Source of the DNA: an uncultured Bacteroidales bacterium
GTDB taxonomy: Bacteria > Bacteroidota > Bacteroidia > Bacteroidales > Bacteroidaceae
Length of the DNA stretch: 64,000 nt
Assembly: GCA_945833885.1 (NCBI GenBank)
Contig: CAMAFY010000001.1
Coordinates: forward strand, 124,001-188,000
Direction: 5' to 3'
Shown here: piece after piece, positions 2,516-63,175 of the stretch
Position numbering within the stretch: position 1 is the first letter of the stretch
Layout: each line of letters starts with the position of its first letter
Notes under the pieces: generated by a model
The model's input: only the letters and a program-made list of their open reading frames with translations
Database searches by the model: none
What the model was told of the DNA's origin: nothing
Position numbers and translations under genes: made by a program

Positions 2516-2713
2516 ATCTTCCGCACTTTAAGTTTTGTAAGTTCTGCAAATTTGCATTTCCTGCTTGTGGATATGTATCAGGTGCCAAATTCTTGTCCTT
2601 CGAAAGTGCGGCACTTTGTTTTACAAACATCGGAACTTTCCATCACAAACATCGGAACTTTCCCTCACAAAGTGCGGCACTTTCTGATGCAAACCTTGGA
2701 GGTCTGTCATTGT
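2516..2713. repeat. 22-bp degenerate tandem array, about 9 units (family A)
   Basis: Four clear 22-bp units start at 2604, 2626, 2648 and 2670. Their cores are AAGTGCGGCACTTT, AACATCGGAACTTT, AACATCGGAACTTT and AAGTGCGGCACTTT, each followed by eight variable bases ending in CA or ACA. The same register can be followed back to 2516 (ATCTTCCGCACTTT...) and forward to 2713 with weaker copies. AAAGTGCGGCACTTT is itself nearly palindromic. The same unit recurs at 9534, 21110, 35107 and 53920. It lies between the M64 peptidase start and the terminator at 2880. Confidence 0.85.
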
Positions 2714-2879
2714 GTAAACGGAGGTGCTCGGATTGAAACTTTTTGGAATGATAATGGTATCATCCTTTTCTCCAGTTCTTTCTTCTCAACTTACGGAACT
2801 TGGGTTTTTATGTTTCATACATGAATGTTCAATCCTTTTCGTTTTATATGACGAGAGGCGTATGACAGAGGTTGTGAAG

Positions 2880-2954
2880 AAAAGAAAAAGAAATCCGGCA
2901 GAATGCAAGAATGAATGCCCGTGTTTACGGACAGACTATGCATACTGCCGGATT
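2880..2954 (-). terminator. Nested hairpin with T-run on the minus strand
   Basis: AATCCGGCAG (2892-2901) pairs with CTGCCGGATT (2945-2954). After one A-A mismatch the stem continues as ATGCA/TGCAT, and a small CCGT-GTTT-ACGG hairpin caps it. Read on the minus strand the stem is followed by a T/C-rich run (plus strand AAAGAAAAAGAA, 2881-2892). It is therefore a good intrinsic terminator for the alcohol dehydrogenase and TIGR04076 genes, 208 nt beyond the TIGR04076 stop. Confidence 0.7.
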
Positions 2955-3161
2955 CCTATATCGGAGTTTCCCTGTGAAACCACAATGTTATACAGTACAT
3001 TTAATGGAATTCTGCGTAGGTTTTGTTGAAAATTATTGCATAAACGATGTGAATTCCTATGGCTGAATTTTGATGTTTACATATCGTTTTGTGTAGAGAT
3101 TTGCATATCGGTATTGACTTCGTGAAAATACACTCCGATATGTCCTGATGATTTTTGCTTT

Positions 3162-3464
3162 CTATTCTATCGTTTCAATATAGAAACTTACAGGTCGAAA
3201 ACCGTCGTTGCAACTGAGCATTGCGCTATATGGGTTTTTCATCCACCCATCATAAAAGTTCCCTTTGCCGCATGCCAGGTCTTCAACAAACGGTTTTAGG
3301 GTCTTCCATGCCTCAGGACAGAAGTTGTCAGGGCGCTGCCCTCCGACGGAAATCCAAGTGTCTCCCTCCTGAACATCGCAGGTATGCTCAATCGGGTTCT
3401 CATATTTTTCCATGAGGTCGTTGTGCTGTATCTTGCGGACAACGGTGATTCTAATGTCTTTCAT
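3162..3464 (-). CDS. TIGR04076 family small protein
   Basis: A 100-residue protein, MKDIRITVVRKIQHNDLMEK... to ...PVSFYIETIE, that matches the conserved pattern of the uncharacterised TIGR04076 family. The N-terminal KDIRITVVRK strand, the single Cys in HTCDVQEGD, the central FCPEAWKTLKPFVEDLACG and the terminal RPVSFYIE are all present. The family is common in anaerobes and has no established biochemical role. It begins 43 nt after the iron alcohol dehydrogenase stop on the same strand, so the two are probably cotranscribed and this protein may assist or follow that oxidoreductase. Length is normal for the family. Confidence 0.8.
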   Translation of the reverse strand: MKDIRITVVRKIQHNDLMEKYENPIEHTCDVQEGDTWISVGGQRPDNFCPEAWKTLKPFVEDLACGKGNFYDGWMKNPYSAMLSCNDGFRPVSFYIETIE

Positions 3465-3507
3465 AAGTAATTCTGATGTCTTGCATGCTTGTTGTTTCTG
3501 TCGTTTC

Positions 3508-4716
3508 TTAGAGGCTTGCCTTGAAAATGTCGAGGATGTCCTGTTCCAAAAGCGGCACCCACGCCTGGTTCAGGCCTTCAGTGTCGGCCACATGTTTGGC
3601 CATTTCGCCCAGACGTACCTCATCAATGCCAACCTCTTTCAGCGTCATGGGGATGCCTATCTCGCGGAAAAAGTTGTGAAGTGCTGTAATGGAGGCCTCG
3701 CAACCTTCAACTCCGAAAACATTTTTGCCGAACTTTTCAATCCGTTCCACCACCTGTTCGTGTAGAATACCCGTAGAATGGGTGAGGATATGCCGCATCC
3801 ATCGGGGAGCAATGATGGCAAGTCCTTCGCCGTGGGTGATGTCATAGTAGGCGGAAAGTGCGTGTTCCATGGAGTGCATCGGCCATCCGCTTCGACTGTT
3901 TCCTAAGCAATATATGCCGTTGCATCCGAGTGTTGTAGCATAGAATATCTCTGCCCGTGCGTTGTAATCCTCGGGGTTTTCCAAAACAATCCTCACGTTT
4001 TTGATGAGCGATTTCTGCGCACCTTCCATGAAAGCGTCGTTCATGTCGATATGTTCTGCGCAGAAGTATGATTCCATGATATGGTTCATACAGTCCGAAA
4101 CTCCCGCTAAAGTCTGTTTTACCGGCAAGGAGAAGGTATAGGTAGGGTCGATAAAACTTACCGCAGGGAACACGAATTGAGAACGATAGGGCAACTTGTC
4201 GTTGGTTTCGGTGCGGGAAATCACAGCCCCCATGTCGTATTCGCTGCCAGTAGCCGCCAAGGTTATGATGTCGACAATTGGAATTGCGGCCGTCGTTGGC
4301 TTGCGTCCGCAGACAATATCCCAGGCTTCCTCTATGTTTTCGTAGACCTTTCCGCCGAGGGTTCCGGCAACTCCGGCAATGGCCTTTGTACAATCGAGCA
4401 CAGACCCGCCACCTACGGAGAGAATTACGTCGATTTTTTCTTCCTGGCAAATGCGAACTCCTTCCAGAACACTGGGATTGAATTTGGGATTGGGCTGAAT
4501 TCCTGGGAGTTCAAACAAGTCCTTGTCGTGAAGAATGTCCTTCACCTCGTCATACAGACTGATGCTTTCCCCTTTGGCAATGCGTTTAATGCTGCCACCT
4601 CCATAGGTGATGAGTACTCGCTGTCCAAAAAGTTTCATTACATTTCCCAGTTTTTCCTTGACAACACCTTTGCCAAAAATAAGTCGGGTTGGGGTCTGAT
4701 AATCAAAGTTCTTCAT
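3508..4716 (-). CDS. Iron-containing alcohol dehydrogenase (butanol dehydrogenase type)
   Basis: A 402-residue member of the iron-dependent alcohol dehydrogenases, close to the NADPH-linked BDH/YqhD branch. MKNFDYQTPTRLIFGKG opens the protein and YGGGSIKR and VGGGSVLDCTKA (residues about 101-112) form the nucleotide-binding region. Metal ligands sit in DCMNHIMESYF (Asp, His), MHSMEHALSA (His) and DITHGEGLA (His). The enzyme would reduce aldehydes to alcohols during fermentation or aldehyde detoxification in the cytoplasm. Residues 46-51 (IAKGES) are extra compared with the usual SIKRxGLYDEV of this branch, so a short surface insertion is present. The downstream TIGR04076 gene probably shares its transcript. 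Physiological substrate unknown. Confidence 0.92.
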   Translation of the reverse strand: MKNFDYQTPTRLIFGKGVVKEKLGNVMKLFGQRVLITYGGGSIKRIAKGESISLYDEVKDILHDKDLFELPGIQPNPKFNPSVLEGVRICQEEKIDVILSVGGGSVLDCTKAIAGVAGTLGGKVYENIEEAWDIVCGRKPTTAAIPIVDIITLAATGSEYDMGAVISRTETNDKLPYRSQFVFPAVSFIDPTYTFSLPVKQTLAGVSDCMNHIMESYFCAEHIDMNDAFMEGAQKSLIKNVRIVLENPEDYNARAEIFYATTLGCNGIYCLGNSRSGWPMHSMEHALSAYYDITHGEGLAIIAPRWMRHILTHSTGILHEQVVERIEKFGKNVFGVEGCEASITALHNFFREIGIPMTLKEVGIDEVRLGEMAKHVADTEGLNQAWVPLLEQDILDIFKASL

Positions 4717-4787
4717 GGTTCTTATGTGTTTTTGTTCTGCATCATGGCGTCTTTATCCGATAATGCCACGAATTTTGTTTGAAATTA

Positions 4788-4884
4788 TTCGAGGAAGGCA
4801 CTATCAATTTCCATTCCTACAAGGCGATTCAGGCATTGCGCTTGTGCCATTTTGGGTATGGAAATCCAATAGTCCTTCCTCGAA
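4788..4884. other. 97-nt nested inverted repeat (structured RNA element or terminator)
   Basis: The outer arms TTCGAGGAAGG (4788-4798) and CCTTCCTCGAA (4874-4884) match over 11 bp. The pairing continues as ACTAT/ATAGT after one unpaired base on one arm. Inside, ATTTCCAT (4807-4814) pairs with ATGGAAAT (4858-4865), and GGCA/TGCC (4832-4835, 4845-4848) closes a central loop. It lies 29 nt beyond the M6 peptidase stop and 71 nt before the alcohol dehydrogenase start, both on the minus strand. No T-run follows, so it may stabilise the M6 mRNA 3' end or act in the dehydrogenase leader. Confidence 0.65.
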
Positions 4885-4913
4885 GAATGCGCATAATGAT
4901 AATGCGGATATGG

Positions 4914-7900
4914 TTATTCCGCCTTCAATGTGTGGATGTATTTCCGTCCGTTTTTGATGTACAGACGTCCGGTTTGCGGATTTTGTATGCGACGTCCGCT
5001 GAGGTCATAGATGACATCATTGTCCGATACGGTGTCAATGATGATGTTTTGGATGCCGTCGGTCGGAAGAACAACAGGGATGAATGAGGACTCGCTTTCC
5101 AAATAGGCGGTGTTGGCGGGCAGGGCGATGTTGGTTTTATGTGAGAATCCCAGTTTACCTCTCACGGAAGCAAGGATGGCTCCTGTGAATTCCTCGGAGG
5201 AAATTTCTTGAAGTGAGCCTTTCAGGCATGTCTCTATGGGGGAAACTTCGGCGTCAACTATCTCAAATGTAAAGTTTGAATCCCCATTTTCGCTTTCTTT
5301 CTTCGAGCAAATGAATCCGGTTTGAGCGGGTATGCAATCCACGGCGCTCAGTACAACGGAGGTGGCTTCAGCGTCAATCGCTGCGGCATACAGGGTCTCC
5401 GTCTGGCAATTAGCAGGGACTTTCACCGCAAAAGGCAGGCATGGTGTCACGTAGTCTACGCTGGATGATGAGCAGACCTTCTCCGCAATGCACATCGTTT
5501 TGGCGGGGATGAGATACCAGTATCCGGCGACATCTCCATCGTTTACCGTCGAAAGTCCGCCTTTTCCATCACTGATGCTTCCGGCTAATACGTCCTCTCC
5601 ATTGATACTTACGAAGTGACGGGCATACAGATATGCGTCATTGTTGTCGTTGACTGGGCTGATTTCCACAGTTTCTGGCAGACTTCCTCCCTGACCTGTC
5701 GCAGTTGTCAGGTACGAAGCGTTGTTGGGGGTAAAGACAGTATAAGCGTTTTCAGCGGTTTGGGTGGCATCAATGCGTAATACCTGATTGACGTTTTTGT
5801 CCCAAAGCGTCCAATTAAAGTCGCCGTTGTTCGTGGTGAGCGCACCGAAATTATCCTGTATGTCAACTACAAGATAGTACAATCCGTTGGTTTTTTCTAT
5901 CCGTTTGCTGTTGGCGATTCGGTCACAGAGGTCGGAATATTCGCAGGCTTTATCGAGATTGTCCATGTTTTCTTCCTCCATGAGCAATGACAGCGCCTCT
6001 ACAATTTCCTGCTGTGTGCTTTCTTCGTCAATGATTTCAGGTTTTCCTACTGCGCCTTCGGGAATGCGGTTGCAGGCCTTCAGGAACATGTTGCTGGCGT
6101 AACCGACCGGTTGATAGGTGAAAGAGGTGTAGTCGTCAGGGACATCGGTGTAGTAAACGCGGTTTTCCTCGGCATTGTATGCCATGTATTTTCCTTCATC
6201 CTCGGCTTTAAGGCTGTAAGATTCGCTTTCTTCATTGGAAATTCCCTTGACGAGTTCCCATTTTTTGTTGTTGTAGGCAAGGGTAGCATCGGTGCCTTTG
6301 TGACGTAGTTCAAATCCTTCGTCAAGACTTCCGGAGATATTCCAGAGGTTGTCGTTGTCCTTTACCGCTTTCCAGTCGTTGATGTTGTCGCAGGGAGTGG
6401 CAGTATCGCTGTTGCCAATCCGCATAAGGCGGTCGCCCGAACGCTGAAGCATCCATGTTTCTTTGGGGAAGGGGAGTGCTTCTTCACCATTCACTTCAAT
6501 CGAAATCTTGGTATCTGTACCGACAGATTCTGCACTTTGGCTGAGGACTTTGTAGAAATCCGGTGAAAAGCCCTTCACATTCAGGTTACGTTCCAAATAA
6601 TTGTCGAATTCCTTATAAGGCTTTTTGTTGAGAAGATATGTCCAGTGGACGGTGGAAAGCGTCATTTCGAGTGGAACACTTTCGAATGTCATCATGTTTC
6701 CATCGTCAGGTGTGCTCCAGCCGCTCACCGTAATCTGGTTGTCTCCTCCGATGTTGATGTAGTGGGTTTCGTCAAATCTCACCACATTCGTTCCGTTGTC
6801 AAGTTTTGTTATGCTGACAGGATTGCGTGGAGTGCTTGAAAGCGTACAGGTGGAATTCACGAATTTGTGTGCGTGTACGCTGTAAAGATAGGTGCTGCCA
6901 TCAATGTTTACCAGACGGAATTGCAGTTGGGTTCTGAAGGCATTCACCATAGTTCCCAGTCCGGCTTCTGAAGAAGATACAAGGCGTGTTCCGTTAGCGT
7001 TGACTGCCCATCCGCCACGTTCTGCCGTCCAAGCCGTGAAAACATCCGATGGTGCTTCGGATATTGTCACCTTATTGCCGGCATCAGGCGTGTTGGAGGT
7101 GTCGATTTCCAACTTGCCACTTTCATTGATGTTGATGTAATGTTCTGAATCGAAGGCGATGATTTTCGTACCATCGGTCTGTTCTTCCAGCGTAATCGGG
7201 TGCTTCGGTTCAAGAGAAAGGCTATAGTCCGGGTTGACAAATTTCTGTGCGGATACGCTGTAAAGATAAGTGGCATCCTGCTGTTCGGAGAGCACGAACT
7301 GCATTTGCGCGCTGGTTGCACCGTCGCCTGTGGCGTCGATACCGGCATCCTTTGATGACATGAAGCGGACTCCCTCGGCATCAACAGCCCAGTTGCCGCG
7401 TGATGTTGTGCCGATGTTGTAGACTTTCGGCAGTTCAAACTTCGTGTCCTTGCTGAAGGTGAACGAAATCAGACCGTTGTTTTCGGTGATTTTCTCAATG
7501 GAACAATGCATCTTGTACTCACCATCCATATTTGGATTGTAGAGGGTTGCGGCAGGATGACTGTAGTCTGTCAGTTCCGTAACTTTGGCCGTTCCCGGGA
7601 AAGGACTTGATGCTGCGTTCTGATAATCCCCACCTGCGGGTATGTGAACGTAGCGTGGATGGTCTATATCATCGTTGGGCTGGTTCCAATCCCACACCGT
7701 TTTGTCGAAATCAATATGGAAAACCATAAGTCCATGTCCGCCTTGTGCGCTGTCGAATCCCGTCTTCTGACGGTTCTCAAGTACGAAGAACTCGCTGCGG
7801 TATGCGGGGTTGTAGATGACGTAAGCCTCCTGATCGGAACTTAAACTCTGCATGTCCGTCACGGTTGTGTCCTCAGTCAGTTCCTTCAACTCCAGCCATC

Positions 7901-9026: not shown

Positions 9027-9150
9027 AATTATTTGGATTTAAGATTTATACAGGGTTGGAATTGCCTTTCAAAAGATGGAATATAACGACAGAAAATGTT
9101 ATCGTTCACTTGGTGATATATTGATGGAAATGCCTTGAATGTCAGGTGTG

Positions 9151-9336: not shown

Positions 9337-9510
9337 TTTTGCGTGAAGGGTGTTGATGGATGATGGGAATTTTCAGAAAAAAATGCGGATAGGGTGGTGC
9401 AGGTCCTCAAAATCATGGGGGGACATTTCTCACCGTCCTTTTCCCGTTCTATTTCTGTCTTCCGTAAGTTTCATTGTTGTCTTTTGCGTGTGATTGTGCA
9501 AGATTCTGTG

Positions 9511-9518: not shown

Positions 9519-9533
9519 CGAAAAAATCAAAAT

Positions 9534-9833: not shown

Positions 9834-9858
9834 CTATCGTTTCTCAAAAAACATTCCC

Positions 9859-10925: not shown

Positions 10926-12101
10926 ATGCAAAAACAGACTAAGGCTATTCATTTCGATTATCAGCGTCCGGATGCTTATGGAGCATTGAGCATGCCGGTA
11001 TATCATTGCGCAGCCTATGAGTTCGAGAACGCGGCAGACATGGTGGAATCCTTTTGCGGACGTTCGGACATGCCCGACTATTCGCGTGTAACCAACCCTA
11101 CAGTAACCTATTTTGAGCGGAAGATCCAGGCGCTGACCAAGGCGCAGGATGTGGTCGCTTTCAGTTCTGGCATGGCGGCCATTTCGAACACTTTGTTTTG
11201 TCTTGCCGCATCGGGTCGCACCATCCTCACATCGCGCCATCTTTTCGGCAACACCCTTGCTTTGATAAACGGGACGATGAGGCGTTTTGGTGTGGAGGTC
11301 GTTTTCTGCGACCTCACGGATTTGAATGCGGTAGAGGCGGCCATAAGCGAGAAAACGTGCTGCATTTTTATGGAAATCATGACAAATCCTCAGTTGGAGG
11401 TCGTGGATATTCCTGCCCTTTCATCGTTGGCGCATAAGCATCGTCTGCCCCTTATCGCCGATACCACCATGGTTCCCTTCACCGTTTTCGATGGTAAGGC
11501 GCTCGGCATTGACGTTGAGGTGGTGTCAAGTACGAAGTACATCTCCGGAGGTGCAACATCGATTGGCGGAATTGTCATAGAACATAGCGTGAACCCCGAA
11601 TTCAAGCAGCGCATGCGTCAGGAGATGCTGATGAATTTCGGCGCATACATGACGCCACATGTCGCTTATATGCAGACACTTGGCCTTGAAACCCTTGCTG
11701 TTCGCTATGAAAAACAGACTCAGAATGCACTCTTACTGGCGGAAGCCTTGGAGAAAATGCCAGGAGTAAAGGCTGTTCGCTATCCCGGACTTCCGAACGA
11801 TGCCTTTCATCATGTTGCAACACGTCAATTCGGAGCGCGTCCGGGTGCCATGATTACCATGGAATTGGCAGACAAGGAGTCGTGCTTTGCATTCCTTGAC
11901 CGCCTGAATCTTATCCGCCGTGCCACGAATCTCTTTGACAATCGTTCGCTTGCTATACATCCGGCAAGCACGATTTTCGGAAATTTCACAGAGGAACAGC
12001 GTCGCTCGATAGACATCAGTGACCGAATTATACGCCTCTCCGTAGGTCTTGAAGCCGTCGAGGACCTTATCGAGGACGTACGTCAGGCGCTGGAAGCATA
12101 G
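10926..12101 (+). CDS. Cys/Met metabolism PLP-dependent enzyme (O-acetylhomoserine sulfhydrylase / methionine gamma-lyase type)
   Basis: A 391-residue fold-type I PLP enzyme of the trans-sulfuration family. PVYHCAAYEFENAADM and YSRVTNPTVTYFERKI supply the N-terminal active-site Tyr/Arg. FSSGMAAISNTLF binds the PLP phosphate, IADTTMVPF carries the Asp that pairs with the pyridine nitrogen, and SSTKYISGGATSIGG carries the Schiff-base Lys. The SLAIHPASTIFGNF segment near the C-terminus resembles substrate-binding regions of O-acetylhomoserine sulfhydrylases and methionine gamma-lyases. Which of these reactions it performs cannot be decided from sequence alone. The next gene is a MalY/PatB C-S lyase on the same strand, consistent with sulfur amino acid metabolism. 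A 22-bp repeat array begins directly at its TAG. Confidence 0.85.
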   Translation: MQKQTKAIHFDYQRPDAYGALSMPVYHCAAYEFENAADMVESFCGRSDMPDYSRVTNPTVTYFERKIQALTKAQDVVAFSSGMAAISNTLFCLAASGRTILTSRHLFGNTLALINGTMRRFGVEVVFCDLTDLNAVEAAISEKTCCIFMEIMTNPQLEVVDIPALSSLAHKHRLPLIADTTMVPFTVFDGKALGIDVEVVSSTKYISGGATSIGGIVIEHSVNPEFKQRMRQEMLMNFGAYMTPHVAYMQTLGLETLAVRYEKQTQNALLLAEALEKMPGVKAVRYPGLPNDAFHHVATRQFGARPGAMITMELADKESCFAFLDRLNLIRRATNLFDNRSLAIHPASTIFGNFTEEQRRSIDISDRIIRLSVGLEAVEDLIEDVRQALEA

Positions 12102-12207
12102 ACGTCTTGCCTGAAAAGCATAAGCATCTTTCATGAAAGTATAGACGTCTTGTATGAAAAGCATGGACGTCTTGTGTGAAAAGCATAGAGGTTTTGTGTG
12201 AAAAAAT
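12099..12207. repeat. 22-bp tandem array, 5 units, starting at a stop codon (family E)
   Basis: Units start at 12099, 12121 (21 bp), 12142, 12164 and 12186. Each has the form TAGACGTCTTG, then two or three variable bases, then TGAAAAGCA. The first unit begins with the TAG stop codon of the preceding PLP enzyme gene, and even its last codons (GGAAGCATAG) resemble a unit end. The array fills about half of the gap before the MalY gene. Confidence 0.85.
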
Positions 12208-15195: not shown

Positions 15196-15391
15196 TTCTT
15201 GGAATGTCGCTACAGACTGTTCCGGATGTTCCATGGAAACCTCTGGATGTTTCATGGAAACCACAGGATATTCCACGGAAACGCTCAGGATATCCAACGG
15301 AAATGTTCCAGATGTTCCACGGGGATGCTCCGGCTATGTCACGGAAAAGTTCTGTATTGGACATGAGAATGATTCGATGTCTGTGATAATA
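15196..15391. repeat. 21/22-bp tandem array, about 9 units, in the htrA leader region (family A reversed)
   Basis: Units start at 15218, 15240 (21 bp), 15261 (21 bp), 15282, 15304, 15326, 15348 and 15370, with a weak one at 15196. The consensus reads GTTCCGGATGTTCCACGGAA. Turned round, the family A unit reads GGAAAGTTCCGATGTT, and this array reads GGAAATGTTCCAGATGTT, so the two are probably homologous in opposite orientation. The array lies between the htrA start and its predicted promoter. Confidence 0.85.
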
Positions 15392-20833: not shown

Positions 20834-21109
20834 ATAAAATATATCTTAATGTTCCATCTTCTTTTCCGCTTTTTCGATATTTTAGGCGGTTTTTCCACCG
20901 CTTCGAATGCAATTTTGCAGATTTTAAAAATGATGTCGGTGCGTTTCCTGAATTTTCATGCCGCCCTTCCATTGTCCGTTCCTGTGAGCACGTTGCATCG
21001 GATAGCGTTTTTCATGGCCTGTCTTGCCGTCGTTTCTCCGTCGGTATTTTGCCGTTTCTGTCCAAGGGCTATTTCCTTGGATTTCGCGTTTTCTGAAAAT
21101 GCTATGAAA

Positions 21110-21219
21110 AAGTACGGCACTTTGATGGGAAAACATCGGAACTTTGATGCTTGAACTTCCGCACTTTCTACAGTAAACATCCGCACTTTTTTCCGAAATC
21201 CTCCGCACTGTTTCTGGTG
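21110..21219. repeat. 22-bp degenerate tandem array, 5 units (family A)
   Basis: Units start at 21110, 21132, 21154, 21176 and 21198. Cores are AAGTACGGCACTTT, AACATCGGAACTTT, AACTTCCGCACTTT, AACATCCGCACTTT and ATCCTCCGCACTGT. The register is exact, with no indels. It lies about 280 nt upstream of the kelch-symporter promoter and past the terminator at 21365. Confidence 0.88.
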
Positions 21220-27531: not shown

Positions 27532-28602
27532 ATGGTATTTTCTGAGACGCTTGAAGCCTGGTACAATGAGAATGGTCGCATTCTTCCGTGGCGAGAGACG
27601 CAGAATCCCTATAATGTTTGGGTAAGTGAGATTATTTTGCAGCAGACTCGGGTAGAACAGGGTAGGGCTTATTATGAACGTTTCCTAAACAATTTCCCCG
27701 ATGTCGCCCATCTTGCCGCCGCGCCTCTTGACCATGTTATGCGCGTTTGGGAAGGTTTGGGCTATTATAGTCGGGCGCGGAACATGCATTGCGCGGCACA
27801 ACAGATTGTGGAACGCGGAGGTTTCCCCACAACATTTGAGGATTTGCGAAAGTTGAAGGGCGTTGGTGAATATACGGCTGCGGCATTGGCATCATTCTGT
27901 TTCGGTGAAGCGAAGGCCGTTGTCGATGGAAATGTATACCGGGTCCTTGCACGTTATTATGGCATTGACACACCAATTGATACGACCGTCGGGAAACGTG
28001 AGTTTGCAGAACTTGCGCAAACGGTGATGGACAAGCGCAATCCTGCTCTTTACAATCAGGCGATAATGGATTTCGGTGCCATGCAATGCACACCAAAGGG
28101 TTGCAACTGCTCCGCTTGTCCTTTTGTTGACAGTTGCAGAGCATACGCCGAGAAGAGAGTGGAAGATCTGCCACAAAAGAGTAAACGTACGACTGTTTCC
28201 GTAAGACACCTTATATATATAATATTAGAAAATACGGAAGGGAAGATATTGATTCATCGTCGTACGGACAAAGATATTTGGCAAGGATTATACGAACCGT
28301 TGTTGTTTGAGCCGGAATCTTCTTCCGAAGAATTCCAAATCATACCGAATTTATTGCACTGGCTGACAGATTATGGGTGCAAAATGTCAGCACGTTCGCT
28401 TCGAATTGATCGGCATCTTGAAGGCTTACGTCATCAGTTAACTCACCGTACACTTGTTGCCCAAGCCTACCGTATCAGAATCTTAAACGCAAACGACCTG
28501 CCTCCGATGGAAGATTATCAATGGGTGAAGCCAGAGGATATGGAACAATATGGTTTTCCGAAACTTGTTAACAATATATTTTCCTTGATGAATATCCGTT
28601 AG
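27532..28602 (+). CDS. mutY: A/G-specific adenine DNA glycosylase MutY
   Basis: A 356-residue glycosylase. The catalytic Glu lies in SEIILQQTRV, the helix-hairpin-helix is LKGVGEYTAAALASF and the catalytic Asp lies in AVVDGNVYRVLARY. The four cluster Cys follow the C-x6-C-x2-C-x5-C pattern in CTPKGCNCSACPFVDSC. From about residue 230 a NUDIX-like C-terminal domain (HLIYIILENTEGKILIHRR) recognises 8-oxoG. It removes A mispaired with 8-oxoguanine. The gene ends 9 nt before a 22-bp repeat array that runs into a terminator hairpin. Confidence 0.96.
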   Translation: MVFSETLEAWYNENGRILPWRETQNPYNVWVSEIILQQTRVEQGRAYYERFLNNFPDVAHLAAAPLDHVMRVWEGLGYYSRARNMHCAAQQIVERGGFPTTFEDLRKLKGVGEYTAAALASFCFGEAKAVVDGNVYRVLARYYGIDTPIDTTVGKREFAELAQTVMDKRNPALYNQAIMDFGAMQCTPKGCNCSACPFVDSCRAYAEKRVEDLPQKSKRTTVSVRHLIYIILENTEGKILIHRRTDKDIWQGLYEPLLFEPESSSEEFQIIPNLLHWLTDYGCKMSARSLRIDRHLEGLRHQLTHRTLVAQAYRIRILNANDLPPMEDYQWVKPEDMEQYGFPKLVNNIFSLMNIR

Positions 28603-28611: not shown

Positions 28612-28765
28612 TTTTGTATAAAATGTTGCAAAACAGGTTAAGGGATAATACAAAACAGATGATGTGATAGGACAAATCAAGTGAGGAGATTTCACAAGGC
28701 AAGTAAGGAATTTACACAATGTAAGTGAGGAAATTCTAAAAGGCAAGTGTAGAATTATTACAAAA
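28612..28765. repeat. 22-bp degenerate tandem array, 7 units (family C)
   Basis: Units start at 28678, 28700, 28722 and 28744 with the pattern (C/T)AAGT(G/A)AGGAAATT, then four to six variable bases, then AAGG or similar. Weaker units at 28656, 28634 and 28612 keep the register. The array starts 9 nt after the mutY stop and ends at the first base of the hairpin at 28766. Confidence 0.8.
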
Positions 28766-28808
28766 AAGCGTTGGTTTCAAACCGATAAATGGAATGAAAC
28801 CAACGCTT
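28766..28808. terminator. Terminator hairpin between convergent mutY and dnaJ
   Basis: AAGCGTTGGTTTCA (28766-28779) and TGAAACCAACGCTT (28795-28808) form a perfect 14-bp stem, followed on the plus strand by AATTTTATG and preceded by AAAAAA for the minus strand. It sits exactly between two repeat arrays. Confidence 0.85.
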
Positions 28809-28825
28809 AATTTTATGACGTTTTC

Positions 28826-29000
28826 TGAATGATATTGCTTGTTTCCTCGAACAGCGTTGCTTATTAGTCGAACAGTGTTGATCGTTTCTTTGAACAATGC
28901 AGTTCGTTTCTTTGAACAATACAGTTCGTTTCTTTGAACAATACAGTTCGTTTCTTTGAACAATGCAGTTCGTTTCTTTGAACAATGTTGTTTGTAAAGT
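28826..29000. repeat. 22-bp tandem array, 8 units, four nearly identical (family B)
   Basis: Units start at 28826, 28848 (21 bp), 28869, 28891, 28913, 28935, 28957 and 28979. The consensus is TGAACAATGCAGTTCGTTTC followed by TT. Units 28891-28978 differ only at one or two positions, unlike most other arrays, so they look recently copied. The array ends at the first base of the hairpin at 29001. Confidence 0.92.
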
Positions 29001-29032
29001 GGAATGCTGAGCAATGAATTGCTGAGCATTCC
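29001..29032 (-). terminator. Hairpin after dnaJ
   Basis: GGAATGCT/AGCATTCC (29001-29008, 29025-29032) continues, after a G-G mismatch, into AGCAAT/ATTGCT with a 2-nt loop. It lies 22 nt beyond the dnaJ stop. The T-run is weak, so it may be a terminator or an mRNA-stabilising end. Confidence 0.65.
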
Positions 29033-29054
29033 TGCAATGTCATCCGTTTTTCAA

Positions 29055-30215
29055 TTATTGGAAATAAGTACGGAAACTATCAAAGATCTTCTTTTTCACC
29101 TTGTCACTTGCCATCATATTAGGACTATCCTTCATATTCTGGAAGGCAGAGTTCTCTTCTTTTGAAAGATTCTCGGGAATATAGACACTGATGTTGATGA
29201 TGATGTCACCCTTTCCATAACTATATCCGTTGCCGTTTACTTGAGGAAGTCCCTTGCCTTTAAGGCGCATACGGGTTCCAGGTTGCGTTCCAGGCTTGAT
29301 GTTTACGCGCACCGGGCCTTCCAATGTCGGGATTTCTATGGTGTCACCCAACGAAGCCTGACTTACGGTAAGCAGAAGATTGTATATCAAATCGTTGGCA
29401 TCACGGATAAAGACATCGGATTGTTCTTCCTCAATCAGCACTTGAATGTCACCGGGAATACCGTTATGACGTGCGGCATGACCGCGATTAGGAACGGTAA
29501 GTACCATACCTTCCTGTACGCCGGCAGGGATTTTTATCTCAACGATGTCCTCACCGTTGATGACACCTTCCCCCTTACATTTGGGGCAAACGTGGTCGAT
29601 GATGGTTCCTTCTCCGTGACAACGTTGGCAAGGCACCTGTTGTTGCATGATGCCAAAGATGCTTTGTGCCTGCTTGATTGTGAAGCCTTGCCCGTGACAG
29701 TCCGGACATGTCTTGGGTGATTCTCCGTTAGCGCATCCGTTTCCGTGGCAGTCCGGGCAGGTAATCTTCTTCTTAATCTTGAACTTCTTCGTTGTTCCGT
29801 TAAGAATGTCTTTGAGGTTCAGACGTACTTTTACGCGAAGATCACCGCCCTGATAGCGCTGTGGACCACGCGAACGTCCACCGCCAAAGCCAAAACCTCC
29901 GCCTCCGCCAAAGATATCTCCGAATGCTGAGAAAATATCATTGATGTCTTGGAAGCCACCGAACCCGCCTCCTCCAAAGCCACCTTGGCCGTTTACGCCC
30001 TGTTTTCCAAACTGATCATAGCGGGAACGCTTGTCTGGGTCACGGAGAACATCGTAAGCCTCGGCGGCTTCTTTGAACTTTTCCTCGGCTTCCTTGTTAC
30101 CGGGATTGCGGTCAGGGTGGTTTTTCATGGCCACCCTCTTGTATGCTTTCTTGATTTCTTCGGCACTTGCATCCTTGCTGACGCCGAGAATATCATAATA
30201 ACTCTTTTCTGCCAT
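29055..30215 (-). CDS. dnaJ: Chaperone protein DnaJ
   Basis: A 386-residue type I DnaJ. The J domain (residues 1-70) has HPD at 33-35 ([10 protein letters not shown]). A Gly/Phe-rich linker ([27 protein letters not shown]) follows. The zinc domain has four CxxCxGxG-type repeats: [25 protein letters not shown] and CPKCKGEG. Two C-terminal beta domains end the protein. With DnaK and GrpE it folds proteins in the cytoplasm. grpE lies 35 nt upstream in the same direction, so they form an operon. dnaK is not in the window. Confidence 0.98.
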
Positions 30216-31011: not shown

Positions 31012-31142
31012 TTATGTACTTATATACAGGATGTCATGTGTTTTGTTGCATTAAATCCTGTTCTTTGATATATCAATTCTTATACTTTAGTACATCTATT
31101 CTTGTACTTTTGTATATCAATTCCTGTTCTTTGGCCAACAGT

Positions 31143-31143
<1 letters not shown>
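31012..31143. repeat. 22-bp degenerate tandem array, 6 units (family D)
   Basis: Units start at 31056, 31078, 31100 and 31122 with the form TC(C/T)TGTTCTTTGATATATC or TCTTGTACTTTTGTATATC, followed by AAT or similar. Weaker units at 31034 and 31012 stay in register. One end coincides with the last base of the ABC-F stop codon; the other lies 9 nt from the terminator at 31002, so the array fills the 3' untranslated region. Confidence 0.85.
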
Positions 31144-32771
<1,628 letters not shown>

Positions 32772-35106: not shown

Positions 35107-35283
35107 AACGTCAGATCTACTCGTTTGAAACATCCGTAATTCCCGTTATAAAGTGCGGCACTTTCCACATCGAAGTGCCGCACTTTTTATTGTAAACATC
35201 CGCATTTTTTTATTGTAAACATCCGCACTTTTTATTGTGAAGTTCCGAACATCCTGTCAGAAAAGTCCGAACCTTCTTTTTAT
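35107..35283. repeat. 22-bp degenerate tandem array, 8 units (family A)
   Basis: Units start at 35107, 35129, 35151, 35173, 35195 (23 bp), 35218, 35240 and 35262. Cores include AACATCCGTAATTC, AAGTGCGGCACTTT, AAGTGCCGCACTTT, AACATCCGCATTTT, AACATCCGCACTTT and AAGTTCCGAACATC. TTATTGTA or TTATTGTG ends three of them. It starts 8 nt after the GH25 stop. Confidence 0.9.
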
Positions 35284-41640: not shown

Positions 41641-41642
41641 AT

Positions 41643-50642: not shown

Positions 50643-50654
50643 AGGGATGTTGTT

Positions 50655-53480: not shown

Positions 53481-53919
53481 CGGAAATGGCATGAGACCGA
53501 TGAACATTTGGAAACCTAAATCAATTACTATTCGACAAAATGCACATTTTCATCGTTTTTGAGCGACAAGGAGATTGCTTTTCCTTTTTTTAAGAATTTA
53601 TAAATATGCCATATTCTTCCATTATATACATCGAAAAGCCCCGTAAACTGTAATTTTAATACCATTTTCGTTATCGTAGAGGTTGATTTTCGTCGTCAGA
53701 AATGCTTACGCTGGGATGTGAAGTGCTACGCTCATGGTGTCGGCAAGCATTGCACACCTACTCGTTTATCGCATTGGAGAAAGTCGGAATGATAAGCATT
53801 TTCATATCGAAAATCTTAAAAGATTTTGACAGCGATGCGTTGCTCTTTTAGAGCGGTTTCAAGCGATATTCTCATGATTTCTTTCTCATTTACACCTGTT
53901 TTTCAGACATGGAATATGG
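53481..53919. other. Intergenic stretch between efflux operon and ribE
   Basis: No gene is supported. It is A/T-rich with a GTGCTACGCTCATGGTGTC stretch near 53728 of unknown nature. LytTR binding sites would be expected here if the operon is autoregulated, but I could not identify a pair of repeats with confidence. Confidence 0.35.
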
Positions 53920-54051
53920 AAAATACGGAGGTTCCTGTAAAAAAGTACGGAAAAACCATCCCCAAACCTCGGAACTTTGCACTGGAAACTGCCGCATTTT
54001 CAATCCAAAAGTACGGAGAAATTTTCAAAAACTACAGCATACTGTTGCAGG
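53920..54051. repeat. 22-bp degenerate tandem array, 6 units (family A)
   Basis: Units start at 53920, 53942, 53964, 53986, 54008 and 54030. Cores are AAATACGGAGGTTC, AAGTACGGAAAAAC, AACCTCGGAACTTT, AACTGCCGCATTTT, AAGTACGGAGAAAT and ACTACAGCATACTG. Sequence identity is low, but the 22-nt register is exact over 132 nt. Confidence 0.8.
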
Positions 54052-56229: not shown

Positions 56230-56354
56230 GTTGTTATGTGAAGTTTTAAGGGATGCTTAGGGGATAGATGATGGTATTGCTGTAAAAGGAATATCGTGCT
56301 GCGATGTGCAAAATGTGGATAACATCGGTTGATTGTATGGTGATGGCTGTAATA

Positions 56355-58463: not shown

Positions 58464-58490
58464 TTGTTCTTAACGTCTGTGGAAATTATG

Positions 58491-59348
58491 TTAGGGAAGT
58501 TTGGGAAATTTGCTCCAGTCGGGTTTTCTCTTTTCCAGAAAAGCCTGCCCGCCTTCGTGCGCTTCATCGATGAGATAATAGAGCATTGTAGCGTCGCCTG
58601 CAAGTTCTTGGATGCCGGCCTGTCCGTCAAGTTCAGCATTCAGTCCGGCCTTTATCATACGCAATGCAAGGGGCGAGCGCTCCATCATTGTCTTTGCCCA
58701 CGAAACAACCTCATCTTCAAGGTCGTCAAACGGAACAACTTTATTGACCATTCCCATTTTTTCTGCCTCATCAGCGGTATAAAGACGGCACATGAACCAT
58801 ATTTCGCGTGCCTTCTTCTGACCTACGATACGCGCAAGGTAACTTGCACCGAAGCCAGCATCAAAGGATCCGACCTTAGGTCCCGTCTGTCCGAACATAG
58901 CATTCTGAGAAGCGATGGTAAGATCACAAATCAAATGCAGCACATGTCCGCCTCCGACAGCAAAACCATTGACCATTGCTATGACGGGTTTTGGAAGAGA
59001 ACGTATCTGTTTCTGAACATCGAGTACATTAAGACGGGGGACACCGTCGCCGCCAACGTATCCTCCGCGTCCTTTAACGTGCATATCACCGCCGGAACAA
59101 AAGGCTTCGGTGCGTAAACGTTCGGCTTCGCTCTGACCTTCTACGGCAGGACTGTGCGCTCCTGTGAGAACCACGACGCAGATATCGGGATTTTCACGGC
59201 AGATAACCAAAGCCTGACTGATTTCGCTCACGGTAAGCGGAGTGAAAGCGTTGCGATAACGGGGACGATTGATGGTAATTCGGGCGATGCCTTCAAAGAA
59301 ATCGAAAAGAATTTCCTGAAAAGGCTTGATGGTGGTCCAGTTTCTCAT
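58491..59348 (-). CDS. menB: 1,4-dihydroxy-2-naphthoyl-CoA synthase
   Basis: A 285-residue crotonase-fold enzyme. [58 protein letters not shown] (the long loop typical of MenB), [20 protein letters not shown] (oxyanion hole) and [20 protein letters not shown] match MenB. It closes the second ring of the naphthoquinone. It is the first gene of the men pair, directly followed by menCE. Confidence 0.97.
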
Positions 59349-59655
59349 GGCTTATTTCATTGTGTTTCGTGGTACGTTCTTTTATTTTTCTGGTGAATTC
59401 CTTGTGTCTAATTTGATGTATTGTTTGAATCCGGTTTCTCTATTCCTTGTCTTGCCTCTGTCGTGCTTCTTATGTTTTTATAAAATTATTCTGAACATCG
59501 TGGCTAAAACATTGGGACATACAATCAAATTCCTGGGACTTGTCGAGGTGTAATCCTGAAATCTGGGAAAGGACGTGTTGGAATTTCAACAAGAGAATAT
59601 GGAATACAGGATGTTGCAGATGGGCAGAATTCTTTGCAGAGAAGGCAGAACGAGG
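59349..59655. other. Intergenic stretch upstream of menB
   Basis: No gene and no convincing -7 box or hairpin were found in these 307 nt. The first 120 nt are T-rich on the plus strand. The menB promoter must lie here. Confidence 0.4.
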
Positions 59656-60129
59656 TTATTTCGTCACTGATTTTCCCTCAAGATATTTGCAATAGATGCG
59701 GATAGCACTCTCAACCATACGTGCACAAGGCCGCGTGGCGTAATAATGTTCGTTGCGCTCTGCGGGGGTGGGGACGGATGATGCCGTGCCGCCAAGGAGT
59801 TCGCGGCAAAGCAAACTTCCGTTATTTTTGCGGAATTCACCGGCAAGATGTTGTACGAGTTCGTAGTTTTCTTTCTTCAAAGCCGCAGAAGGGTAGGGAT
59901 TCTCCAAATCTTTACCCGTTTCAAGTCCGGCAAGAAGGAACATTCCACAGGCGCTTCCACAGGTTTCACGCATACGTCCGATGCCACCACCAAAGGAAGC
60001 GGCAAGGCGGGATAGAAGATTTTCATCAAGACCATAGACATCGGAGAATGCCATAGCGACAGATTGTGAGCAATTATATCCGTTCATGAACAGATCGACA
60101 CCTTTTCGAACACGTTCTTCAGTAGTCAT
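59656..60129 (-). CDS. C_GCAxxG_C_C family putative redox protein
   Basis: A 157-residue protein. MNGYNCSQSVAMAFSDVYGL, SFGGGIGRMRETCGSACGMF, LLCRELLGGT and RPCARMVESAIRIYCKYLE supply the spaced Cys residues that define the C_GCAxxG_C_C family. Members are thought to bind metal or take part in redox chemistry, though no activity is proven. The family is common next to transport or redox genes in anaerobes. It begins 29 nt after batE on the same strand, so it may be the last gene of the bat operon. Confidence 0.88.
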   Translation of the reverse strand: MTTEERVRKGVDLFMNGYNCSQSVAMAFSDVYGLDENLLSRLAASFGGGIGRMRETCGSACGMFLLAGLETGKDLENPYPSAALKKENYELVQHLAGEFRKNNGSLLCRELLGGTASSVPTPAERNEHYYATRPCARMVESAIRIYCKYLEGKSVTK

Positions 60130-60158
60130 TTCTTTTACGTTTTTTTGATGATTGGGGC

Positions 60159-60968
60159 TTATTTAGTTGTTCCTTCTTTTTGCGCTGGAGCATCTTCCAC
60201 CACTTTGATGAAGCCTTTCTCGGTCATCCATCCCTCAGTTTCGGTGCCGGGAATGGAGATATGAATCCAGTTTTTCTCACTTTCATCGTTAAGAATGGTG
60301 AAGATCTGTCCTTCTCGAAGCGTGATTACCTCCTTACTGTTGGGGGAAGGAGATGTCAGAACTTTGACTTCCGGTGAGGAAATGATGGCTTGCATGTTAT
60401 GGTTGTAGCGGTAACGCTGTATGGAAGCGTTGACAATACAGAATGCCATACCGAACAATGCGATGACGAATACCGTGAATCCGGCTTTCCGAAGGGCAAT
60501 GCGTTGGGGAAGAACATAGACAGCCAAGGCCAGAAAACCAAGCAAAAGGAAAAAGATGCTGAAGGTTGTCCATCCCTCTACGCCGTATGTGTTGACGAGC
60601 ATACGGAACCATTGGATAAAAAACATCTCATCGCTCTCGATATCTTGCAGACCCATGTGCAGTTGAGCCTTTTGAAGATTGTCGTGAGCATGGGTGAATC
60701 CGGGACGAATGCGCAGTGCACGGAGGTAATTGAGCGAGGCTTCAGTATACTGTTGTTGGCGGTAGTGGGCATTACCAAGGTTATAATAGATGTCGGCGGA
60801 CGGAGTTTCTCCAATCTGTTGCAGGGAATCCGCCACCTGAGAAAGAAGGGTCGCTGCAGCATTGTATTGCATACTGCTATAGGCCTCTTCTGCCTTCTGG
60901 ACTCGTTCATCGGCAATGGACAGAAACGGACATAGAAACAGCAGGGTAAGGATGAGGATATGTCGCAT
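60159..60968 (-). CDS. batE: BatE-like TPR/SH3 membrane protein
   Basis: A 269-residue protein. The signal-like MRHILILTLLFLCPFLSIAD is followed by TPR repeats (AEEAYSSMQYNAAATLLSQV, SADIYYNLGNAHYRQQQYTE, ASLNYLRALRIRPGFTHAHD), two membrane helices (TTFSIFFLLLGFLALAVYVL, AGFTVFVIALFGMAFCIV) and a C-terminal SH3-like domain (EVKVLTSPSPNSKEVITLRE, WIHISIPGTETEGWMTEKGF). This order is that of Bacteroides aerotolerance protein BatE. It is the fourth bat gene of the set. Its role, maintaining the envelope under oxygen stress, is known only in outline. Confidence 0.9.
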   Translation of the reverse strand: MRHILILTLLFLCPFLSIADERVQKAEEAYSSMQYNAAATLLSQVADSLQQIGETPSADIYYNLGNAHYRQQQYTEASLNYLRALRIRPGFTHAHDNLQKAQLHMGLQDIESDEMFFIQWFRMLVNTYGVEGWTTFSIFFLLLGFLALAVYVLPQRIALRKAGFTVFVIALFGMAFCIVNASIQRYRYNHNMQAIISSPEVKVLTSPSPNSKEVITLREGQIFTILNDESEKNWIHISIPGTETEGWMTEKGFIKVVEDAPAQKEGTTK

Positions 60969-61134
60969 GGTGATGATGGGTGCTTGGTGGAATAATTGTG
61001 CTTGTGAGAGAAAGGAAATCGGGAGAATTTAGCGTTTGAAAGCGATAATGAGTACGGATTCTTCCAATAGTTTTCTCCGAAAATTTTAATTGCATCTGCT
61101 GGTTTTCGTGGTGAAACCTTATCGAAGCACTTGT

Positions 61135-62988
61135 TTAGAGTTTGGTGTCGATGCGCGTGATGATGTCGGAGGCACTGTGGAGATGGGCCTGTTTTTTTGA
61201 CTTTTCCGCATCGGGAGCAAAGCGGGCATAATCGCAAGTCTCAAGCAATGTCTTTAATTGTTGGAGGATATCGTTTGGAATCTCCTTTTGTTCCAGTGCG
61301 TCAAGAAGACTTTGCGAGGTGAGGGTTGCGGCATTAAGTCTGAGTTTGTCGGTAAAATAATTGCGGAGAATGTTGGAAAGTTGTCCGTAGAAGTTGTTGT
61401 CCTCCTTACCTTCCGTGATTTTCTTCTCAATAGTCCTCAATGCTTTCATCGCATTTTTTTGCGCTTGTGAGGTGCGCCATCCGGCAATGTCGGCACGAAG
61501 TGAGGCACGTTTGTTGGCAAAGGTCAGGACAAAAAGGCCAGCAACAATGATGAAGATGTATAGAAGGACGTTCGAGATACTGCCAATCCATAACATTCCA
61601 CCGCTGAATGTGCCGTTGCTATGGGTGGAAGATGCCACGTGACGATAGGGCGAAATCTCCATTTCGCGGGACTTTGCGTCGTAATTTCCTTCGTGAGCGC
61701 TACGGGTTCCCTTTTTGATGTCCAAAGGAATTGCAGGGACGGATAGGGTAACGTAGCGGCCTGTCTCGGGATTGAAGAAAACGAAATCCTGTGGTTTTAG
61801 GGTGTATTGCCCGATGTTTCGGGGTACAAACGTGTAGTCGAAATACATTTCTCCGCTGATACCATCGGCATTTACCTTGGTATTGTCGGTAGTCTTCGGC
61901 TCAAAATGCTCAAAGTCTTTGGGAAACGGCATTTCAGGAGCCTTAATCAGTTTCATATTTCCCTTGCCGCTGACGGTGAGTCTGAGGGTTGCAACATCGT
62001 TGGTACGGGGTATGGGGGTGATAAGTTGGGACTTTATCTTGAAATTGCCGACACCTCCGGAGAAATTTGCAGGACGGGGAGTGGGAAGTGGCAGCACTTC
62101 GATGTTCAAGTCGGGACTTTTGCGCAGAACCTTGACGTTGATGTTCCCACCACCATTGAAGAATGCGTCTATGGCATCCATCTTTGTGTCGCGTTGCAGC
62201 ACGTCGCATTCAAAGGAAATGCCGGGAATGGTAATCTTTCCTGTTTGTTGTGGGAAGACAATGTATTTAAGATTGGTGGCCACACGGTAGAGTCCATTGT
62301 TCTGGCGTTCCGTATTTGGACTGAGATTGCGCGGAAGTTCGATTTCCTGTGTCCAAAATCCTTTGAGGTCAGGCTTCTGTTTCAGCATGACATTTGCCAA
62401 GGCTACGCCTACTTTTGCGTGAACATTGTAGGTAAGCATAATGGGTTCCTGCTCGTAAACACGGTGTTTTGTGGCATCAACAGTAAAGTACAGGTCGCGT
62501 TGTGTGATGGCAGAGCCTGCATTTTGCGGTTTGACGTAATAGTCTTCATCGTCTTCTTGCGGCTGGTTACCCGTTGATGCTTTGCCGTTTCCCTCCTGAA
62601 CGTTGATGGACAACGGCTTTGTGCGTAATGTTTTTCCGTTGACCCTGATGCTGGCTACGGGAATATTGAATGTTCCTTTCTTATCCGCTTGTAGTACAAA
62701 TGTGTATGTAGTATTGCTCGACTTGGAGGATTTACCGTTGATGTACTGATAACTTGAAAAATGGCTTTCGGAAGGGCCTACAAGTTTTTCAAATCCATTG
62801 AATGCCGGACACGAAAAATCCGTACCCTCAGCATTGGAGAGCACGAATTTTACTTTGAATGGCAAACCGGTTGTTACCGTCTTTGGTGCCTGGGCTACAA
62901 AGGAAACCTGTGCCAGGACCTCGGTAAAATGGAAGCCGGCACAGAGGATGGTAAGGGTAAACAGAATATATCTGAGAAATTTCGTCAT
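61135..62988 (-). CDS. batD: BatD-like protein (oxygen tolerance)
   Basis: A 617-residue protein counted from MTKFLRYILFTLTILCAGFH, a signal peptide; ATG at 62997 three codons upstream is an alternative. Several beta-sandwich repeats follow (PKTVTTGLPFKVKFVLSNAE, VDATKHRVYEQEPIMLTYNV, RTNDVATLRLTVSGKGNMKL), then the C-terminal membrane helix VLLYIFIIVAGLFVLTFANK and a cytoplasmic helical tail. This is the order of BatD. It follows batC with a 22-bp repeat array in the gap and precedes batE by 166 nt. It likely interacts with the von Willebrand-type BatA/BatB proteins in the periplasm. Confidence 0.93.
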   Translation of the reverse strand: MTKFLRYILFTLTILCAGFHFTEVLAQVSFVAQAPKTVTTGLPFKVKFVLSNAEGTDFSCPAFNGFEKLVGPSESHFSSYQYINGKSSKSSNTTYTFVLQADKKGTFNIPVASIRVNGKTLRTKPLSINVQEGNGKASTGNQPQEDDEDYYVKPQNAGSAITQRDLYFTVDATKHRVYEQEPIMLTYNVHAKVGVALANVMLKQKPDLKGFWTQEIELPRNLSPNTERQNNGLYRVATNLKYIVFPQQTGKITIPGISFECDVLQRDTKMDAIDAFFNGGGNINVKVLRKSPDLNIEVLPLPTPRPANFSGGVGNFKIKSQLITPIPRTNDVATLRLTVSGKGNMKLIKAPEMPFPKDFEHFEPKTTDNTKVNADGISGEMYFDYTFVPRNIGQYTLKPQDFVFFNPETGRYVTLSVPAIPLDIKKGTRSAHEGNYDAKSREMEISPYRHVASSTHSNGTFSGGMLWIGSISNVLLYIFIIVAGLFVLTFANKRASLRADIAGWRTSQAQKNAMKALRTIEKKITEGKEDNNFYGQLSNILRNYFTDKLRLNAATLTSQSLLDALEQKEIPNDILQQLKTLLETCDYARFAPDAEKSKKQAHLHSASDIITRIDTKL

Positions 62989-63043
62989 AATCGTCATCAG
63001 GAAAAATGGGAGAATGGACGGAGAGGCGTGGAGAATTGAGGAT

Positions 63044-63175
63044 GCAACATCGGATGTCCGTATTGGAAACTTCGGAACAATCGATATGAAACCTTTGGTC
63101 TTTCAATGCGAAAGTTCGGAACAATTGATGTAAAACCTTTGGTCTTTTAATACGAGAGTTCAGAAGGATTACGAT
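63044..63175. repeat. 22-bp degenerate tandem array, 6 units with alternating types
   Basis: Units start at 63044, 63066, 63088, 63110, 63132 and 63154. They alternate between GAAACTTCGGAACAATCGAT and GAAACCTTTGGTCTTTCAAT types, giving a 44-bp higher-order period. The TTCGGAAC core resembles family A. It lies between the batC stop (63212) and the batD start. Confidence 0.85.

What the first reader, a model, noticed from the sequence alone, without database searches (positions are those of the whole stretch)
2516..63175. Eleven intergenic arrays share a 22-bp period although their unit sequences differ
I find degenerate tandem arrays at 2516, 9534, 12099, 15196, 21110, 28612, 28826, 31012, 35107, 53920 and 63044. 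All are confined to intergenic DNA, and all have 22-bp units with only rare 21- or 23-bp units, across 4-9 copies. The unit sequence falls into several families. A constant length with drifting sequence is hard to explain by chance slippage. It implies selection for spacing, such as two helical turns for a DNA- or RNA-binding protein or for chromosome architecture, or a copying mechanism with a fixed template length. Tandem repeats with units near this size have been noted in bacterial intergenic DNA, but a family-independent 22-bp rule at this density is, as far as I know, not explained.
Basis: partly seen in the sequence, partly recalled or inferred. Interest (0 to 1): 0.85.

Follow-up and report, generated by a model that had tools for sequence, protein, structure and literature searches.

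The report
Evenly spaced 22-bp-pitch intergenic site arrays
Between the genes of this gut Bacteroidales bacterium lie arrays built on an exact 22-bp step, and the commonest kind recurs about every 10,000 bases as if placed on purpose; some related species show similar arrays built from different sequences, so the spacing rather than the letters seems to be kept, and what the arrays do is not yet known.

Summary
All 11 window arrays show the 22-bp period (10 of 11 beat all 400 shuffles). Over 855 kb of this genome lag 22 dominates intergenic autocorrelation (z 41; z 26 with the commonest family masked); coding DNA has a small bump, E. coli none. Two layers exist. (1) A main family: a 15-bp dyad core AAAnnnCSGnnnTTT every 22 bp with a weakly conserved 7-bp spacer, most often 4 clear sites; 267 two-site places genome-wide against 2 for a control. 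These arrays are evenly spread, median 10.3 kb apart; contigs outside the motif-building set agree on the lack of close pairs. (2) Private arrays of unrelated sequence, not evenly spread. Congeners have other units at 21 or 22 bp, with dyads shown in four of them; even spread is significant in 3 of 7 tested; one congener has 9/18 bp. Best reading: platforms for a dimeric DNA-binding protein, two helical turns apart, probably organising the chromosome. Protein and function are inferred. REP/RAYT elements, slippage, RNA hairpins and curvature each meet contrary evidence; none is excluded outright.

The parts
12094..12204 (.). private array, about 5 units of AAGCATAGACGTCTTGTATGAA, overlapping the last bases of the Cys/Met-metabolism enzyme gene 10926-12101
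15224..15347 (.). private array, 5-6 units around GGATATTCCACGGAAACGCTCA, with a 21-bp step
21109..21189 (.). main-family array, 4 cores in mixed orientation
28612..28760 (.). private array downstream of the HhH-GPD/NUDIX gene 27532-28602; weakly similar to the main profile
28826..28990 (.). private array of another unit (TCGTTTCTTTGAACAATGCAGT), on the downstream side of dnaJ 29055-30215
31012..31140 (.). private array between a 205-aa ORF (GrpE by position, not tested) and the two-domain ABC ATPase gene 31143-32762; weakly similar to the main profile
35128..35275 (.). main-family array, 7 cores, one 23-bp step
53920..54000 (.). main-family array, 3 cores; weakest of the 11 (shuffle P 0.08 over 53914-54045)
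63067..63165 (.). diverged main-family array (2 cores recognised), read by TRF as a 44-bp unit

Best explanation
The main-family arrays are platforms for a sequence-specific dimeric DNA-binding protein. SHOWN: a 15-bp dyad core, exact 22-bp pitch, weakly conserved 7-bp spacer, most often four clear sites, placement outside confident genes, even spread at about 10 kb. INFERRED: each core binds one homodimer; two helical turns put neighbouring dimers on one face so that they bind cooperatively; one platform per ~10 kb acts in chromosome organisation at the scale of supercoil domains (anchor, bridge or boundary). In at least four congeners (G008, G059, G060, G073) arrays of other dyad sequences keep the 21/22 pitch, which suggests that recognition sequences change while geometry stays. 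The private arrays are most simply old platforms that lost their protein and whose units were homogenised locally and drifted, so that 22 is inherited rather than newly measured; this last step is the weakest.
For: Neighbouring cores lie 22 bp apart in 212 cases, 23 in 5, 21 in none. In arrays of 3 or more sites the 15 core columns hold 17.3 bits and the 7 spacer columns 1.0 (205 units). Neighbouring spacers agree at 40% against 28% for unrelated ones, cores at 79% against 70% (138 pairs). Two-site pattern: 267 places in the whole genome against 2 for the reversed control; in held DNA 0 of 78 matches lie in 571 kb of ORFs of 250 aa or more. Dyads in arrays picked by period alone: 29 of 83 in congeners p<0.05 against 16 of 229 coding repeats and 9 of 57 arrays of other periods. 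Even spread, arrays of 3 or more sites: 55 intervals, median 10.3 kb, CV 0.41 against 0.84, 0 under 3 kb against 8.8 expected; with 4 or more sites CV P 0.0035, with 2 or more 3 of 63 under 3 kb against 11.2. Six null models: CV reached by 0 of 2000 in each. Training-free regex: 0 of 43 intervals under 5 kb against 13 expected. Contigs C4, C6-C9, not used for the motif: 1 of 23 under 5 kb against 6.4, P 0.0007. G008 CV 0.36 against 0.83 (0 of 2000), G069 P 0.0025, G073 P 0.03. Supercoil domains of about 10 kbp: passages of PMC3820752.
Against: No binding protein identified. On contigs C4, C6-C9 the CV is not significant (0.79 against 0.93, P 0.15). Even spread not significant in 4 of 7 congeners (G060, G059, G057, G054; 9, 7, 7 and 2 arrays); no correction for seven tests. 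Dyads not shown in G069 (2 of 17), G057 (2 of 9) or G054 (0 of 4). The main family's own dyad score (36 of 50) is partly circular, because its seed pattern was dyadic. G004 has 9/18/27. Private arrays are neither dyadic (3 of 31) nor evenly spread, and 7 of 31 resemble the main profile at p<0.05, so the fossil idea is weak. Half-sites fall in discrete classes, which one protein need not produce. Congener arrays lean to convergent and away from divergent gaps (22 conv, 32 co, 5 div against 56/239/66), which also suits 3'-end functions.
Confidence: 0.38

Rival explanations
1. Neutral minisatellites: an early 22-bp unit multiplied by slippage or unequal exchange; the length is inherited and the sequence drifts.
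For: Several private arrays have, by eye, homogeneous centres and decayed edges, e.g. C3 18665 and window 28826-28990; 44- and 66-bp higher-order units; 9 of 138 neighbouring main spacers are identical.
Against: Main arrays keep cores and lose spacers; 14 of 31 private arrays also conserve columns unevenly; private arrays are nearly unrelated (12 of 465 pairs above the 99% null where about 5 are expected, 0 above 99.9%); drift does not explain the even spread.
Confidence: 0.25
2. REP/BIME-like palindromic repeats spread by a Y1 (RAYT) transposase.
For: Extragenic, palindromic, hundreds of sites, species-specific. Y1_Tnp match in 7 of 9 genomes, 6 over cut-off. In G008, which has a nearly full-length match, 9 of 17 anchor cores end in GTAG, the tag of one REP superfamily (the anchor pattern allowed only GTAG or GCAG).
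Against: No Y1_Tnp match in G059 (87% complete) and G057 (99%), which have 21/22 arrays, and only a partial one in G000 (39-121 of 121); the G000 core profile shows no GTAG or CGTC end; exact 22-bp pitch and even spread are not REP features known to me.
Confidence: 0.13
3. RNA elements: bidirectional terminators or mRNA-stabilising hairpins.
For: G008 three-site elements: at 8 of 17 anchors the first and third sites are reverse complements at 12-15 of 15 positions; three folded at z -6.4 to -10.3. One of two folded main arrays of the window reaches z -5.1, one of two private ones z -3.3. Congener arrays favour convergent gaps.
Against: In G000, 8 of the 50 arrays of 3 or more sites outside ORF calls lie in divergent gaps, near the share of such gaps (50 of 338); first and last units are not inverted (10.06 against 10.32 matches); the other main array folds at z -2.2 and the other private one at -1.0.
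Confidence: 0.12
4. Intrinsically curved DNA or gyrase-wrapping sites: phased A-tracts, not a specific protein.
For: A/T tracts of main arrays are phased at 11 bp in 50 of 52 against 31 of 173 random gap pieces, partly built in by the AAA...TTT pattern; ~11-bp periodicity is linked to negative supercoiling in bacteria (abstract starts of PMC4132750, contested by PMC7537859).
Against: Not consistent in other species: at 11 bp G008 1 of 15, G073 1 of 11, G060 2 of 7, G059 2 of 7, G057 0 of 7, G069 3 of 7; G008 at 10.5 bp 6 of 15.
Confidence: 0.12

Closest known systems
BrickBuilt minisatellite/MITE and the 22-, 23- and 41-nt tandem repeats of Porphyromonas gingivalis (PMC4596501: abstract and first part of section 7 read)
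   Same: Bacteroidales; intergenic; tandem units of 22-23 nt
   Different: BrickBuilt repeats one 23-nt sequence between leader and tail with small inverted-repeat ends, 19 copies in ATCC 33277; here spacers vary, no leader or tail was found, there are hundreds of sites and many unrelated units
REP/BIME elements (PMC2817692 and PMC3733652, passages)
   Same: dispersed extragenic palindromes, partly in arrays, proposed to act in chromosome organisation and to bind gyrase
   Different: G000 core without GTAG/CGTC tag, no consistent RAYT, exact 22-bp pitch, even spread; G008 cores do often end in GTAG
Dispersed nucleoid sites such as parS, Noc, SlmA and MatP sites (recalled, no call)
   Same: palindromic sites distributed over a chromosome and read by one dimeric protein
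   Different: those are mostly single sites shared between species; these are arrays whose sequence differs between congeners
Genome-wide 10-11-bp A-tract periodicity of bacteria (abstract starts of PMC4132750, PMC3431218, PMC3940949)
   Same: 22 is two turns of 11 bp; main arrays have phased A-tracts
   Different: that signal is a spread compositional bias; this is a sequence repeat, and other species' arrays lack consistent phasing

Membership tests
REP/BIME with RAYT | palindrome tagged with GTAG or CGTC at its base | tested here: inconclusive
   not in the G000 core profile; 9 of 17 G008 anchor cores end in GTAG
REP/BIME with RAYT | RAYT (Y1_Tnp) gene in the genome | tested here: not met
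   no match in 2 of 9 genomes tested (G059 87% complete, G057 99%), both with arrays; partial in G000; present in others
REP/BIME with RAYT | alternating orientation of neighbours | tested here: not met
   neighbours at 22 bp: same orientation 138, opposite 74
BrickBuilt-type MITE | conserved leader and tail segments | tested here: not met
   all-against-all of 65 array gaps with arrays masked, E 1e-3: 18 cross hits, the largest group six gaps
BrickBuilt-type MITE | short terminal inverted repeats | not tested
   ends of about 12 bp would be missed by the search
Minisatellite made by slippage | whole unit conserved between neighbours | tested here: not met
   main family: core 79%, spacer 40%; private arrays mixed
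[quoted passage not shown]
   15-bp degenerate cores and 7-bp spacers; definition from a passage of PMC3733652
Known structured RNA | match to an Rfam family | tested here: not met
   0 matches in the window at gathering score
Supercoil-domain boundary element | one element per ~10 kb | tested here: met
Supercoil-domain boundary element | blocks supercoil diffusion or bridges DNA | not testable with these tools
   needs bench work

The most novel reading that the evidence does not exclude
A chromosome-organising system in Bacteroidales whose DNA sites are conserved in geometry (dyads at a two-turn pitch, about four per array, one array per 6-10 kb) but not in sequence: protein specificity and sites are replaced together between species, as at eukaryotic centromeres, and private arrays are remains of earlier generations.
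Probability: 0.25. Interest if true: 0.93.

Novelty: new variant of a known kind. Interest (0 to 1): 0.8.

Why it matters
Evenly placed, sequence-specific site arrays that could define ~10-kb domains are not known to me in any bacterium; supercoil-domain ends in Salmonella and E. coli are described as dynamic and stochastic (passage of PMC3820752). Here candidate sites can be listed by coordinate, so the question whether fixed sites organise a bacterial chromosome at that scale becomes directly testable. Change of sequence under constant geometry would give a bacterial case of site-protein co-evolution that can be followed over dozens of congeners.

Tried and rejected
Rfam and tRNA scans of the window: nothing. 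A dyad in every array: not in private arrays. Strong relations among private arrays: none. Curvature as the common principle. Whole-array inversion as in G008: not in G000. Conserved array position between species: 3 of 7 main-array gap-genome pairs with a syntenic counterpart hold a 20-23-lag segment against 11 of 101 other pairs; small, pairs not independent, not used. Searches of the held library for a printed account of a 22-bp intergenic period or evenly spread arrays in this group found none, apart from the mention of 22-nt tandem repeats in P. gingivalis W83; most subscription papers are not held.

Weak points of method: genes were called by my own simple ORF scorer. 16 ORFs under 250 aa that held main arrays were dropped from the gene set before the tests. 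The loose profile gave 801 hits, 393 outside ORF calls, so its flank profile is diluted; one search repeats it on array sites only, and regex tests were added. Arrays within 600 bp were merged for the spacing test. In one search 56 arrays were placed in gaps and 3 were not. Four kilobases of C1 were not fetched and read N. Congener samples are 60-400 kb for the nine and 11-40 kb for the others (too small to judge). For the contigs C4 and C6-C9, array positions were merged by hand from the place lists; some are single cores. One search had also counted C10, of which the first 20 kb had served for the motif and for which two lists were cut, so I repeated it without C10: 23 intervals instead of 28, P 0.0007 instead of 0.0001. 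That, the dyad test by species and the GTAG endings in G008 made me lower the best explanation from 0.40 to 0.38 and the novel case from 0.27 to 0.25, raise REP/RAYT from 0.10 to 0.13 and lower curvature from 0.13 to 0.12.
Full report
What it is in. The window is G000:C1:124001-188000 of a 3.11-Mb draft genome. Its genus is probably GTDB Prevotellamassilia: congener G054 has a contig of 1,231,770 bases, the length of NZ_LT629845.1 of P. timonensis; this is inferred from length alone. 58 genomes of the genus are held, this one included.

The observation. All 11 arrays are there (53914 is weak), and the 22-bp period is a property of intergenic DNA of this genome: z 41 at lag 22, 32 at 44, 24 at 66 over 855 kb, absent from shuffled gaps and from E. 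coli. ORFs of 250 aa or more show a small bump (0.2495 against about 0.242), which is significant because the sample is large. With the commonest family masked, lag 22 stands at z 26; lag segments outside that family number 65 at 22, 45 at 44, 23 at 21, 21 at 43, 20 at 23, and 15 or fewer at every other lag from 10 to 60.

Main family. Cores AAAnnnCSGnnnTTT follow each other at exactly 22 bp (212 pairs; 23 bp: 5; 21 bp: 0). Core columns hold 17.3 bits, spacer columns 1.0. Of 83 arrays of two or more sites 37 have four; weaker sites continue in phase at 22, 44, 66 and 88 bp beyond the ends (z 7.0, 3.2, 4.5, 3.1). Half-sites come in discrete classes (GTGC, GTTC, CATC, GTAC, CCTC, ATGC, CTTC after AAA). 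The exact core AAAGTGCGGNACTTT occurs 108 times here and once in the 40 other genomes, which did not include the close congeners G059 and G069.

Placement. Arrays sit in long gaps (median 773 bp for 65 array gaps against 302 for 402 gaps of 100 bp or more) and are evenly spread: median 10.3 kb, CV 0.41 against 0.84, under six null models including length-matched gaps. A regex without training gives 0 of 43 intervals under 5 kb against 13 expected from an exponential. On contigs C4 and C6-C9, which did not contribute to the profile, 1 of 23 intervals is under 5 kb against 6.4 (P 0.0007) and 1 under 3 kb against 4.1 (P 0.04), but the CV is not significant (0.79 against 0.93, P 0.15). The independent data thus confirm the lack of close pairs more than strict evenness.

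Private arrays. 31 arrays outside the main family keep the same period. They show no dyad excess (3 of 31) and no even spread, being if anything clustered (10th percentile of intervals below the null, P 0.002). Column conservation is uneven in 14 of 31; 7 of 31 are weakly like the main profile; among 465 pairs 12 exceed the 99% null and none the 99.9% null.

Other species. Commonest lags in congeners: G008 21/42/63; G060 21 with 42/63 and 22; G057 21; G073 22/44/66 with some 21/42/63; G059 9 and 22; G069 22, 21 and 9; G041 and G054 nothing clear; G004 9/18/27 and no peak at 22. Dyad tests on arrays picked by period alone: 29 of 83 p<0.05 against 16 of 229 coding repeats and 9 of 57 arrays of other periods; by species G060 8 of 9, G008 7 of 17, G059 5 of 11, G073 4 of 12, G069 2 of 17, G057 2 of 9, G041 1 of 2, G054 0 of 4, G004 0 of 2; named loci 11 of 49. 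Even spread is significant in G008, G069 and G073 and not in G060, G059, G057 or G054. In 51 named Prevotellaceae/Bacteroidaceae-like loci 22 is the commonest intergenic period in Tandem Repeats Finder (24 arrays, next 7 bp with 12), with units that differ by eye; in 29 further loci it is weak (4 arrays, 7 bp has 5).

Interpretation. Conserved cores with variable spacers at a fixed pitch are what sites for neighbouring protein dimers look like; recent tandem duplication would keep the spacers. Two turns suggest cooperative binding on one face. Spacing near 10 kb matches the size of supercoil domains (passages of PMC3820752), so I favour chromosome organisation, at 0.38. The protein, its binding and any effect on domains are inference. 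For the private arrays two readings stay open, remains of older platforms or slippage arrays with an inherited unit, and I cannot decide between them. In G008 an RNA hairpin or a GTAG-tagged REP is a live alternative.

Noticed in passing
G004:C1 (L144-L163): A congener with a single-contig genome has intergenic arrays of 9, 18 and 27 bp (CCGGAAAAA, TCGTTAACT, ATCCGGATA and others) instead of 21/22.
   Followed up: partly
G008 (L245-L248): Three-site elements whose first and third sites are reverse complements and vary together (CAAGG/CCTTG, CTCGG/CCGAG, CACGG/CCGTG); three folded ones (L244, L246, L248) reach z -6.4 to -10.3.
   Followed up: partly
window 28760-28815 and 28996-29035: By eye, terminator-like inverted repeats lie between and beside the two private arrays in the convergent gap between the HhH-GPD/NUDIX gene and dnaJ.
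   Followed up: no
G000 gaps C2 65237, C2 84824, C3 36505, C3 54716, C5 6414, L015 15928: Six array-bearing gaps share a stretch of about 35-300 bp at 68-86% identity outside the arrays, a dispersed repeat of unknown kind.
   Followed up: no
G000:C6:58678 and G000:C7:1039: The same 37-bp two-site sequence occurs on two contigs in opposite orientation, perhaps a duplicated or overlapping stretch of the draft assembly.
   Followed up: no
L058, L059, L102 (other Prevotellaceae): Period-22 arrays recur at about 7-10 kb within single loci of 21 kb, like the spacing in G000.
   Followed up: no
G000:C1 about 62830-63220 (L005): By eye the long gap beside a main array resembles a tmRNA gene, but ARAGORN finds none in L005.
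   Followed up: partly
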